Shown: piece by piece, positions 7,519 to 12,592 of the stretch
How positions within the stretch are numbered: the stretch's first letter is position 1
How the letters are laid out: each line of letters starts with the position of its first letter
Notes under the pieces: model-generated
Databases searched by the model: none
Seen by the model: the letters and a program-made list of their open reading frames with translations, nothing else
Told to the model about the DNA's origin: nothing
Program-made: the position numbers and the translations under genes
Assembly (NCBI GenBank): GCA_026985515.1
Contig: JALSQH010000110.1
Location: 1-13,157, forward strand
Reading direction: 5' to 3'
From: a bacterium
GTDB lineage: Bacteria > JALSQH01
DNA length: 13,157 nt

Positions 7519-7593
<75 letters not shown>

Positions 7594-8495: not shown

Positions 8496-8504
8496 TGGTA
8501 TAAT
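8496..8504 (+). promoter_or_regulatory. Extended -10 promoter for the umuD-umuC operon
   Basis: TGGTATAAT is a perfect extended -10 element (TGN-TATAAT). The -35 region at 17-base spacing is poor (TTACTT, 8476-8481), which is usual for extended -10 promoters. Transcription would start near 8511, only about six bases before the ATG at 8517. I see no E. coli-type (CTGT-N8-ACAG) or Bacillus-type (GAAC-N4-GTTC) LexA box here. Confidence 0.65.
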
Positions 8505-8516
8505 GATTCAAAAAGA

Positions 8517-8909
8517 ATGGTTAACAGAAGGGGAAAGGGAAAAGGCCGTCTTATTGCAACGGGGTTTGCCTCTCCCGCTGATGATTTTCTTGAGAGGCCT
8601 CTTGATCTCAATAGCTATATTGTAAAAAACCCATCTGCTACTTTTTTCTTTCGGTATGAGGGGGAGGGTTTTGATTTGCGGAATGTGATGAATGGAGATC
8701 TTCTCGTTGTGGACAGATCCCTGACGCCTGTTAGCGGTGATCTTGTGGTGGTTGTTTGCGGAGATGAGTTCATTTTGAGGGAAATTAAAATAAAGAGCAG
8801 GAAGATATACCTGCTGAGTGACACCGGTCTTGAGGATCCTGTTTTGTGTGGCAATTTTGAAATCTGGGGAGTGGTTACCCATATTATCAGAAATCTCAGG
8901 CATAAATGA
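8517..8909 (+). CDS. umuD: UmuD'-like protein with both catalytic residues replaced
   Basis: This 130-residue protein aligns without gaps to E. coli UmuD from its residue 25 onward: TGFASPADDF against CGFPSPAADY, DLN, then NPSATFF against HPSATYF, NGDLLVVD, and WGVVTHIIR against FGVVIHVVK. UmuD normally self-cleaves on RecA-ssDNA to give UmuD', which partners UmuC in DNA polymerase V. Here the catalytic Ser (E. coli S60, in GDSM) is Gly51, in GEGF. The catalytic Lys (K97, in FTVKK) is Arg88, in FILRE. The N-terminal arm is nearly absent, replaced by a basic stretch (NRRGKGKGR). Self-cleavage should be impossible and also unnecessary. Start choice is open: ATG 8517 is almost leaderless, TTG 8493 overlaps the -10 box, and an ATT at 8553 sits seven bases after a purine-rich tract. 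umuC follows after three bases. Confidence 0.85.
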   Translation: MVNRRGKGKGRLIATGFASPADDFLERPLDLNSYIVKNPSATFFFRYEGEGFDLRNVMNGDLLVVDRSLTPVSGDLVVVVCGDEFILREIKIKSRKIYLLSDTGLEDPVLCGNFEIWGVVTHIIRNLRHK

Positions 8910-8912
8910 AAA

Positions 8913-10175
8913 ATGAGCGAATATTTTGCCCTTGTAGATTGTAACAATTTTTATGTTTCCTGTGAGCAGGTCTTTAATCCTTCTCTCCGGGGAAAGGCTG
9001 TGGTTGTTCTGTCAAATAATGATGGTTGTGTGATCTCCAGATCTCAGGAGGCAAAGGCTGCAGGTATTAAAATGGGCCAGCCTTTCTTTGAAATTGAAAA
9101 AATGGTAGAGGAAGGCAGGGTTATTGCTCTTTCAGCAAATTTTACCCTGTATGGAGATATGTCCAGGAGGGTAATGGAAACACTTTCTTTTTTCAGTCCC
9201 TTTGTGGAGATTTATTCTATTGATGAAGCTTTCTTACTGCTTGATAATAATGATGTGGATGACCTTTTAAAATATGGGGAAGGTATAAAGGAGTATGTGT
9301 ATAGATGGACAGGAATACCTGTGGCAGTTGGCATAGCCCCCACCAAAACTCTTGCCAAGGTTGCCACATATATTGCAAAACATGATTCTCCGAAGAGCGT
9401 GGTTTTCATAAGAAGGGGAGAAGATCTTAATCCTTACCTTGAAAAGGTGCCTGTGGAGGAGATATGGGGGATTGGAAGAAGTTACTCAGAATTTTTGCAA
9501 TTAAAGGGAGTTAAAACTGCCGCTGATTTTGTTAAGTTGCCTGAACAGTGGGTGAAAAGGTACATGAAAATAAATGGTGTAAGAACATGGAGGGAACTGC
9601 AGGGAAAGAAAGTGTTTTCCCTTTCGGAGAGGAGCATAAGAAAATCTTTCATAACTTCAAGGACCTTTGGAGAACCTGTTGAGGATTTTGAGAGTCTGAA
9701 GTCTTCCATTATTACTTTTATGAAAATGTCAGTTGAGAGACTCAGGGAAGAGGGTTACCTTGCCTCGGAGGTAACAATATTTATTTCAAGCAGCCTGCAT
9801 GTGAAGGATATTTACAGGTCTGCCATTGTTGAAAATCTTCAGTCTCCCACAGATTACCTGCCAGATTTAATAGCCCCTGTGGAGGATATGTTAAAAAGGA
9901 TTTACAGGAAGGGAGTGAAATACAGAAAAGCTGGAGTGGTACTATCTGGATTGATAAGGAAGGAGAATTATCAGTATGAACTTTTTACACCAGCAGAGGT
10001 TGTGAGGAGAAAGGAGAATTTGATGGCTGCAATAGAGGAAATTTCTGGAAAATTTGGGAGGGACTCAATTAAACTTGGAGGAGAATCTCTATCCAGCAGG
10101 TGGAAATCAGTCCAGAAACACCTCTCAAGAAGATACACAACTTCCTGGGATGGGATTCCGGTGGTGAGGGGGTAG
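8913..10175 (+). CDS. umuC: UmuC-like Y-family translesion DNA polymerase
   Basis: This full-length (420 residues; E. coli UmuC 422) catalytic subunit of a polymerase V-type enzyme copies past damaged template bases. Metal-binding residues are present: D9 in LVDCNNFY, and D104 and E105 in YSIDEAF. The steric-gate tyrosine is Y14. Other family segments are VLSNNDGCVISR, GIAPTKTLAKVA, VEEIWGIGR (helix-hairpin-helix region) and SRTFGEPV (little finger). QYELF at 354-358 matches the beta-clamp motif QLNLF of E. coli UmuC. The end LSRRYTTSWDGIP is the typical UmuC C-terminal (DUF4113) tail. It begins three bases after the umuD stop with only a weak ribosome site, so translation is probably coupled. 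Nothing suggests loss of polymerase activity. Confidence 0.96.
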   Translation: MSEYFALVDCNNFYVSCEQVFNPSLRGKAVVVLSNNDGCVISRSQEAKAAGIKMGQPFFEIEKMVEEGRVIALSANFTLYGDMSRRVMETLSFFSPFVEIYSIDEAFLLLDNNDVDDLLKYGEGIKEYVYRWTGIPVAVGIAPTKTLAKVATYIAKHDSPKSVVFIRRGEDLNPYLEKVPVEEIWGIGRSYSEFLQLKGVKTAADFVKLPEQWVKRYMKINGVRTWRELQGKKVFSLSERSIRKSFITSRTFGEPVEDFESLKSSIITFMKMSVERLREEGYLASEVTIFISSSLHVKDIYRSAIVENLQSPTDYLPDLIAPVEDMLKRIYRKGVKYRKAGVVLSGLIRKENYQYELFTPAEVVRRKENLMAAIEEISGKFGRDSIKLGGESLSSRWKSVQKHLSRRYTTSWDGIPVVRG

Positions 10176-10278: not shown

Positions 10279-10374
10279 ATGAAGCTTAACCAACCAACCA
10301 ACCTACCTACCTACTTACCTGAAACACATCTTTGGATACTTTTTCCTGATTATTTCTTTTCTTTTACTCAGTGA
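10279..10374 (+). CDS. 31-codon OFF-state reading frame ahead of the repeat-controlled gene
   Basis: The ATG at 10279 has the best ribosome binding site in the region (AGGGGG, five-base spacing) and lies just after a strong promoter. As written, its frame reads MKLNQPTNLPTYLPETHL and stops at TGA 10372-10374. The frame passes through the tetranucleotide repeat and ends just before the downstream coding frame becomes a clear protein. I read it as the truncated product of an out-of-frame repeat state, not as a functional peptide, though a leader-peptide role is not excluded. Confidence 0.6.
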   Translation: MKLNQPTNLPTYLPETHLWILFPDYFFSFTQ

Positions 10375-12592
10375 TTTACCTCTTGAAGCACATCCTTCTC
10401 ATGGAAATCATAATGGAAATCACCATGGAGGATATGGATATTGTGGTACTCAGGTAACACTTAATGTTCCTTCATCCATCTGGGTTGGTAATATGCTGCA
10501 AAACAGGGGTCAGATTACCCTTGATGGTGAAGGAAGCAATATAGTCATCGGAAAGGATCTGCATAATTGCGGTGTTATCAGAAGTAATGCAGAACTGTTC
10601 TGTCGGAGAATTCACAGGGAAGGGGAGCTGGATGTTGAGGATGTGATTGAGAAGCATAAATGTATCAAAGGTCCCGATAATCTTTTTGAGAGGAATTATG
10701 GCAGAAGGATTTCTGATGCGACATATATATTTTCTGATTCGGGAGAGGTGACTCAGGATGGAGAGATTGTTGGTTATGGTGAATTCACTACTGGAGGGGT
10801 AACATTCAGATGGGATGGAGATGAGTGGATTATAGAGGGACAGGGTTATATAAGGGGAAGTGCCGTTTTTGAAAGTGGGGTAAAGATGAATGGTGCATGG
10901 GTGGATTTACTTGGGGATCTGAGTGTGAATGGAGCGTTAATTATTGATAGCGAGAGCACTCTTATTCTTCAAAGTATTGAGTGGCCAGGGTTGCTTGTCA
11001 GGGGTATGTTGAGAGTTGATGGATATGGGAGATTTAATACCGGTATTTACACAGGTCAGATGATGACAGGTTTCAATGCAGAGGTTGAGATATACGGAGG
11101 GCTTTTCGTGGCACACAACTTGCATAATAAAGGTAAGATGAAGGTTAAGTTCAGTCAGATGGTGATGAGAAGAATAGCAGAGAGGATCAAGCAACTTGAA
11201 GATGAAGAAGATAAGCAACTGCTGAGTGTGCAATATGCTGATGGAATTACGATGTTTGCTGGAGCGGGAATAGCTATTTTTGCATCCAGAAGAGGTAGCC
11301 TGGATGAAATTATGGCAGGTGAAATAACGGATGTTTCATACAGGATACTGGGTACTACAAGAAAACTTGGAGTTGATCTTGGAGGAGGCCTGGTACCTCC
11401 ACAGGTAATAGCATATGGTTTTATTGAGAATCTGAAACAGTCGGGTTATAAGCAACCGGTTTTACTAAAACTTTATTATTTGCCTCCTGACTTCTTTTAT
11501 GGAGAGTTTATGGATGCTTCAGATGGGGAATATATTGGAATATATCAGCTTGGAGATGGTTACAGGAAGGTTGATAAGGCTTTTTTTGAAGAAGTTGAAA
11601 TGGACCTGGAAAAGTGGTATGCCAGTTTACCAGTAACTATTTCAGAGGAATGGCAGCATCAAAGGGATCTGGAGTGGGAGGAGTTTTTGAGACCGGTGAG
11701 TGGAACAGCGAGTTTCGGTACAGAAAGTAGATTATTAAATTCAAAATTTGGAACGATGTCGTTCTTGGGTGGGTGTTATATAAAATATGACCATAGATAT
11801 ACTGTAACAGGTTTCAAAAAATGGAAGGTACTTGATGAAAACCTTTGGGATTCTTTATACCAGGTTATATTTGATGCTTCAAGTCTGAGTAAGGGAGATT
11901 ATAAGATTGGTTGTTCACCTGTATCGGCAGCTCTAATTTTTAGATATTGGGGTTGGAGAAATAGTAATTATAATTCCTGTCTCCCTGACAATAGGAATCT
12001 TTTAATTGATCTTCATAAAGCAATGAAGACAACGGATGATGGAGGAACAGAAAATGAAAATATAGCACCTGGTATAAAAAGTGTTGCGCAAAAGTATGGT
12101 ATGGAATTTAGAACAGGAGGGAAAGAGTTTTGGTGGAAGTCTCCATACAATTTTATTAGGGACGAAATACTGAGAGACAGACCTGTACACCATTCTTATT
12201 ATACTGCAAAGATGCTAAAGAAAGGAATGGGTCATTCAGCGGTGGCGTATGGTGTCAGGCATGTGAAAAGAGTTTATAAAACCTCTATCGGTACCAATGA
12301 CAGTCTATGTGCAGATAGGCATTATGTAGAAATTATATATTCTGCCGAAGCGGATTATGAAGAAAATCCACTTGGTTTTGGTGAGCATAGATTGGATATA
12401 TGGGCTGCACCGCCAGGCTGGTATGATGTTGTAGTTATTCCTGTTCATGGATGTCCTTCCGGAGGAGGGGGTGGTGGAGGAGGTGGTGGATGTAGCGAAA
12501 CACCAGGTCAGGATGAAGTGACCATTTTCTTTGCTGTTTATATGTGGATATTTTTAGTTAAAAGAAGGACACTCAACAAAAAGCATAGATGA
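10279..12592 (+). CDS. Candidate phase-variable surface protein: signal peptide, beta-solenoid, C39-like peptidase, Gly10-Cys sorting tail (OFF as written)
   Basis: The coding frame is open from 10283 to the stop at 12592 but lacks a standard start before ATG 10493. It is one base out of phase with ATG 10279. Upstream of 10493 it encodes a signal peptide (core GYFFLIISFLLL, likely cleavage after PLEA) and a His/Gly-rich mature start (HPSHGNHNGNHHGG). Numbering from the ATG at 10493, a motif [IV]-x3-L-[HQ]-N-x-G-x-[IM] recurs three times (VGNMLQNRGQI, IGKDLHNCGVI, VAHNLHNKGKM) within a beta-rich region up to about 220, suggesting a solenoid. A charged helix follows (about 225-245), then unrecognised sequence. 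A C39-like cysteine peptidase follows, with Cys474 in GCSPVSAALIFRYWGW and His581 in GMGHSAVAYG. The tail has ten Gly (657-666), Cys667, a hydrophobic segment (VTIFFAVYMWIFLV) and basic residues. The first solenoid motif starts before 10493, so that ATG is not the natural start. No close family is recognised. The peptidase assignment rests on motif shape. Confidence 0.7.
10288..10319 (+). repeat. Tetranucleotide repeat, eight WACC-type units, candidate phase-variation tract
   Basis: There are eight contiguous 4-base units: AACC four times, TACC twice, TACT once and TACC once. The tract begins nine bases after the A of the ATG. Because four is not a multiple of three, each unit gained or lost shifts the frame. 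The distance from the ATG to the downstream coding frame is one base out of phase (214 bases to 10493). Losing one unit, or gaining two, would put the ATG in frame with the signal peptide. Tetranucleotide tracts at 5' coding ends drive phase variation in Haemophilus and Neisseria surface genes. Confidence 0.8.
12461..12580 (+). other. C-terminal sorting-like tail: poly-Gly, Cys, membrane segment, basic end
   Basis: Ten consecutive glycine codons, using GGA, GGG and GGT in mixed order, lie between Cys654 and Cys667. The sequence then continues SETPGQDE, a hydrophobic stretch of about 14 residues (VTIFFAVYMWIFLV) and KRRTLNKKHR. The order of Gly-Cys, transmembrane segment and positive cluster resembles tripartite C-terminal sorting signals such as MYXO-CTERM, GlyGly-CTERM and Synergist-CTERM. 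In some of these a dedicated intramembrane protease processes the tail and the Cys is the anchor site. The mixed codons argue for selection on the protein and against recent slippage. Confidence 0.5.

What the first reader, a model, noticed from the sequence alone, without database searches (positions are those of the whole stretch)
8517..8909. UmuD homologue that starts as UmuD' and has lost both catalytic residues
Gap-free alignment with E. coli UmuD shows Ser60 replaced by Gly51 and Lys97 replaced by Arg88, while the fold-defining segments are kept. The N-terminal arm that self-cleavage normally removes is missing. The protein therefore looks permanently in the active UmuD' form, next to an intact UmuC. 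This would bypass the RecA-dependent cleavage step that delays mutagenic repair, making the polymerase potentially constitutive or controlled by another signal.
Basis: partly seen in the sequence, partly recalled or inferred. Interest (0 to 1): 0.78.

Follow-up and report, generated by a model that had tools for sequence, protein, structure and literature searches.

The report
Pre-activated UmuD' with dead protease site
This bacterium makes the helper subunit of its error-prone repair polymerase in an already-activated form that has lost its self-cutting machinery, and the genome has no LexA detected, so the usual damage-triggered self-cleavage step appears to be gone; similar losses have happened independently in a few other bacteria and in some phages.

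Summary
Confirmed, with corrections. The 130-aa protein at 8517-8906 is a UmuD-family S24 protein. It has Gly51 where E. coli UmuD has Ser60 and Arg88 where it has Lys97, and it lies 3 nt before an intact umuC. It is not a sequencing error or a local mutation: the only other held genome of the phylum (64-67% identity) has Glu and Arg at these sites and an even shorter N-terminus (10 residues). Both genes are under purifying selection. The arm is not cleanly absent: 15 residues remain (E. coli 24), with the usual PLFS-like motif gone. The genome (97.6% complete) has RecA, no detectable LexA, no other UmuD and no other Y-family polymerase. Most likely this is a constitutive UmuD' subunit of a Pol V that has lost both cleavage-based SOS controls. 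It is not unique. Uncleavable UmuD partners arose at least four times on the UmuC tree, and three of these lineages have short-armed proteins with Lys97 replaced by Arg. Phage P1 HumD is a known natural UmuD'. New variant of a known kind. Whether the polymerase is constitutively active is untested; in E. coli, Pol V still needs a RecA subunit after UmuD' is formed.

The parts
8517..8909 (+). umuD'-like gene, 130 aa, S24 fold, catalytically dead
8559..8564 (+). Thr15-Gly16, equivalent of the E. coli Cys24-Gly25 cleavage site
   Evidence: alignment
8667..8669 (+). Gly51 codon (GGT) at the position of catalytic Ser60; Glu in the relative G001
8778..8780 (+). Arg88 codon (AGG) at the position of catalytic Lys97; Arg also in G001
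8913..10175 (+). umuC, 420 aa, Y-family polymerase with DUF4113 C-terminal domain; acidic residues, clamp-binding-like QYELF and C-tail kept
8496..8504 (+). TGGTATAAT, extended -10-like site 12 nt before the ATG; TGGTAAAAT at the equivalent place in G001. Weak evidence: 2.3 such sites per window expected by chance

Best explanation
The gene encodes a naturally pre-activated UmuD' subunit. It folds like UmuD', keeps the conserved N-terminal segment that E. coli UmuD' is modelled to place near the UmuC active site, and pairs with the UmuC encoded 3 nt downstream to make a Pol V. It cannot cut itself, because the Ser-Lys dyad is gone and no other S24 protein of the genome could cut it in trans. 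The cleavage switch has therefore been dropped and UmuD' is ready as soon as it is made. With no LexA detected, the LexA part of the switch is absent too. Remaining control must lie in transcription, protein turnover, or RecA-filament activation of the assembled polymerase. Shown here: sequence, fold prediction, conservation, gene content. Inferred: dimerisation, UmuC binding, polymerase activation, mode of control.
For: Dyad lost in both genomes of the phylum, with different residues at the Ser site, as expected when Ser is no longer under selection. Both genes are under strong purifying selection: umuD pN 0.24, pS 0.80; umuC pN 0.26, pS 0.74. GFASPADDFLERPLDLN is identical in both. UmuC motifs and C-tail are kept. 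Predicted fold is UmuD', Z 14.1. No LexA or second UmuD (the other S24 hits are signal peptidase-like in G000, and the syntenic short ORF in G001). RecA present; sole Y-family polymerase. Precedents: P1 HumD starts at MGFPSP and is annotated as complementing UmuD' (PMC7092418). Natural UmuD'-UmuC operons with K97R occur in Nitrosomonadales and beside LexA in G008.
Against: 10-15 residues remain in front of the UmuD' start, so it is not exactly UmuD'. Only two genomes of the phylum are available, both fragmented assemblies. No functional data. Absence of LexA rests on profile searches of 97.6% and 80% complete genomes.
Confidence: 0.8

Rival explanations
1. The protein is locked in an uncleavable full-length-like state and restrains UmuC, as E. 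coli UmuD S60A reduces mutagenesis.
For: A 15-residue arm remains and cannot be removed; S60A in full-length E. coli UmuD lowers UV mutagenesis (PMC3901139). G010 shows an S60A/K97Q UmuD with an apparent arm of about 20-26 residues.
Against: The arm is 10 residues in the relative and the PLFS-like motif is lost in both. UmuC is the only Y-family polymerase and is conserved, so permanent inhibition would be pointless unless something else relieves it.
Confidence: 0.12
2. Decaying gene or sequencing error.
For: Draft assembly of 268 contigs.
Against: The relative, a separate assembly, has also lost both residues; pN is well below pS; reading frames of both genes are intact.
Confidence: 0.02
3. 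The arm is trimmed by a different protease, so activation remains regulated by another route.
For: A short, basic, disordered N-terminal segment remains (residues 1-19 mostly pLDDT under 50).
Against: No conserved site in that segment between the two genomes (MVNRRGKGKGRLIAT and MRKPQRIIAT); no candidate protease was found.
Confidence: 0.06

Closest known systems
E. coli UmuD' / Pol V (UmuD'2C)
   Same: S24 fold (Z 14.1 to 1ay9), GF(A/P)SPA N-terminal segment, gene directly before umuC, UmuC with DUF4113 and C-tail
   Different: Made without cleavage; Ser60 and Lys97 equivalents lost; 15-residue leader; no LexA found in the genome
HumD of phage P1 and relatives (N15 gp26, HK140, HK639)
   Same: Naturally short UmuD' form; SGDSM motif altered (AADSHH, AGATHY, AGSTYL)
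   Different: HumD stands alone with no umuC beside it in the stretches read, starts at MGFPSP, and mostly keeps the Lys; the window protein scores only 68 bits to the NCBIfam HumD model (cut-off 120)
Short UmuD'-like proteins of Nitrosomonadales MAGs (L042, L047) and of G008/G386
   Same: Start 3-8 residues before the Gly25 equivalent; Lys97 replaced by Arg; next to umuC (not in G386)
   Different: Ser kept in Nitrosomonadales and G386; those genomes also carry a LexA-like protein or a cleavable UmuD
Acinetobacter UmuDAb and Bacteroidetes LexA-like regulators
   Same: Departures from canonical SOS control in lineages without canonical LexA (PMC8565304)
   Different: Those keep a cleavable Ser-Lys dyad and a DNA-binding domain; this protein has neither

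Membership tests
UmuD/UmuD' subunit of Pol V | S24 sequence and fold, nearest to UmuD | tested here: met
   the NCBIfam UmuD model scores 99.8 bits, just under its cut-off of 110
UmuD/UmuD' subunit of Pol V | Gene adjacent to an intact umuC | tested here: met
   3 nt gap; UmuC acidic residues and C-tail kept
UmuD/UmuD' subunit of Pol V | Binds UmuC and supports translesion synthesis | not testable with these tools
   needs biochemistry
Self-cleaving UmuD (S24 peptidase) | Ser60-Lys97 dyad | tested here: not met
   Gly51/Arg88; Glu/Arg in the relative
Self-cleaving UmuD (S24 peptidase) | About 24-residue N-terminal arm ending in Cys/Ala-Gly | tested here: not met
   15 residues (10 in relative), Thr-Gly at the site
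HumD family | NCBIfam HumD model above cut-off | tested here: not met
   68.3 bits against a cut-off of 120
LexA-controlled SOS operon | LexA in the genome | tested here: not met
   genomes 97.6% and 80% complete

The most novel reading that the evidence does not exclude
A phylum-level lineage runs Pol V without either proteolytic SOS control: no LexA and a permanently processed, catalytically dead UmuD'. More generally, loss of UmuD self-cleavage is a recurrent evolutionary route (at least four times on the UmuC tree), often marked by a shortened start and a Lys97-to-Arg change, turning a peptidase into a plain polymerase subunit.
Probability: 0.6. Interest if true: 0.62.

Novelty: new variant of a known kind. 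Interest (0 to 1): 0.52.

Why it matters
UmuD cleavage is presented in the literature held here as the general activation step for umuDC-type operons, with P1 HumD as the exception (PMC7092418). Operon-encoded natural UmuD' proteins in several bacterial lineages, one without LexA, suggest that the delay step is dispensable. They offer natural systems for testing what the cleavage step contributes and what RecA does beyond it.

Tried and rejected
A viral-contig scan with the window protein found no relatives. No WYL (PafBC-type) or M78 (IrrE/ImmA-type) regulator in the two genomes. The promoter scan found no standard -35/-10 pair before the gene; the extended -10-like site is not above chance by count. 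Weak LexA DNA-binding hits are below cut-off; the G000 hit reads like a GntR-type winged-helix regulator. I considered one common origin for all uncleavable UmuD proteins: holding the UmuCs of the window, G001, the two Nitrosomonadales loci and G010 in one clade is rejected (p-AU 0.00013). The group was named after an earlier tree was seen, so read that p-value with care. The original HumD paper (PMC94175) is not held, so HumD function rests on the record annotation and PMC7092418.

Full report
OBSERVATION. The ORF at 8517-8909 (+) encodes 130 residues and is followed after 3 nt by a 420-residue UmuC at 8913-10175. It matches Pfam Peptidase_S24 at E=2.7e-13 and E. coli UmuD in the PDB at E=4e-18. 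Alignments place Gly51 on Ser60 and Arg88 on Lys97 without gaps up to that point. AlphaFold gave pLDDT above 80 for most of residues 31-130 and low confidence for residues 1-19. The best solved match is E. coli UmuD' 1ay9 (Z 14.1, rmsd 2.2 A, 105 residues).

IS IT REAL? Only one other genome of the phylum is held (G001; public record JALTID010000076.1, an unclassified bacterial MAG). Its UmuD is 64-67% identical and reads YEGDEF where E. coli has ASGDSM, so Ser60 is Glu, and Lys97 is again Arg. Its arm is 10 residues, capped by an in-frame stop. Two separate assemblies agree that both residues are lost. Nonsynonymous differences are far fewer than synonymous ones for umuD (pN 0.24, pS 0.80) and umuC (pN 0.26, pS 0.74; synonymous sites are near saturation, so no precise ratio is given). 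The residue at the old Ser site is free to vary while GFASPADDFLERPLDLN is identical. This is what one expects if the peptidase is gone and the polymerase-binding function stays.

CORRECTION. The arm is shortened, not absent. E. coli has 24 residues before the Cys-Gly cut; the window has 15 and the relative 10, both rich in Arg and Lys and without the PLFS-like motif common in other UmuD proteins. Hymenobacter L037 has an arm of about 13 with an intact dyad, so arm length alone proves nothing. The upstream TTG start (8493) is unlikely because it lies just upstream of a TATAAT hexamer, but this is not proven.

GENOME CONTEXT. G000 (2.36 Mb, 97.6% complete) has RecA, one Y-family polymerase, and only two S24/S26-type hits: this protein and a 101-aa signal-peptidase-like protein. 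LexA DNA-binding hits are below cut-off in both genomes. WYL and M78 regulators are absent. Only the umuD-umuC pair is shared around the locus; the upstream gene differs in G001. The operon is thus outside any recognisable LexA circuit, and no other S24 protein could cleave the UmuD in trans.

HOW WIDESPREAD? In the loci gathered here, 52 S24 proteins with a UmuC-like frame on the same strand keep Ser and Lys and 6 do not (my count from its table; the set is not a random sample and includes some LexA-type proteins). The exceptions are the window (G,R), G001 (E,R), two Nitrosomonadales (S,R), G008 (A,R) and G010 (A,Q). The Nitrosomonadales proteins begin MTT-GFASP (or, in L047, possibly MPYKMTT-GFASP), so they are close to natural UmuD'. 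One of these genomes also has an ordinary cleavable UmuD with its own UmuC; the other has a LexA-like protein and a further short UmuD'-like protein. In G008 the short UmuD' (MQRQVVGFASP) sits between LexA and a Y-family polymerase; its class-mate G386 keeps Ser but has Arg at 97. On a UmuC tree the losses need at least four changes, and holding five of these UmuCs in one clade is rejected (p-AU 0.00013). Three lineages share the pattern short start plus Lys97 to Arg; G010 is different (longer arm, Ala and Gln).

KNOWN PRECEDENT. Phage P1 HumD begins MGFPSP and is annotated as functionally complementing UmuD'. PMC7092418 calls it an already activated, shorter UmuD and an exception to the general rule. 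Its relatives have an altered Ser motif. So the idea of a natural UmuD' is known. What I did not find in the searched papers is an operon-encoded bacterial UmuD' that has lost both residues, in a lineage without LexA, or the repeated origin of the state.

MECHANISM. In E. coli, UmuD2 is cut with the help of the RecA filament, UmuD'2 binds UmuC, and a RecA subunit with ATP completes the active enzyme (PMC6511836). [quoted passage not shown] The window pair keeps the N-terminal segment and the UmuC C-tail (TTSWDGIPVVRG). I infer that UmuD' is ready on synthesis, that the RecA-transfer step may still gate activity, and that the basic leader may lie close to DNA. The last is speculation. Constitutive mutagenesis is not shown.

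VERDICT. New variant of a known kind.

Noticed in passing
L092 3319-5597 (G008); L117 817-1881 (G386): A short UmuD'-like gene lies directly behind lexA in two genomes of one class; in G008 a Y-family polymerase follows, in G386 a helicase-like gene instead.
   Followed up: partly
L093 2530-3171 (G010): UmuD with Ser60 to Ala and Lys97 to Gln but an apparent arm of about 20-26 residues, next to umuC: a candidate naturally uncleavable full-length UmuD.
   Followed up: partly
L088 (G351) around 1580; L089 (G080) minus strand around 1548: UmuD-like proteins with an intact dyad but no GFPSP-type cleavage segment and no UmuC nearby.
   Followed up: no
L125, L129 (G388); L118, L124 (G387): Nitrosomonadales genomes with more than one umuDC-type operon; in G387 one is cleavable and one is natural UmuD' with K97R.
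   Followed up: partly
window 10493-12592: 699-aa protein with a weak C39-like peptidase match (E=0.24) and a C-terminal poly-Gly, Cys, hydrophobic, basic tail that looks like a sorting signal; a 434-aa ORF in L002 ends in a similar Cys-hydrophobic-basic tail.
   Followed up: no
window 10287-10320: Short degenerate repeat of AACC/TACC units in the intergenic region after umuC.
   Followed up: no
window 7519-7593: tRNA-Gly (anticodon CCC) on the minus strand between the tamB/Omp85-type genes and the umuDC region.
   Followed up: no
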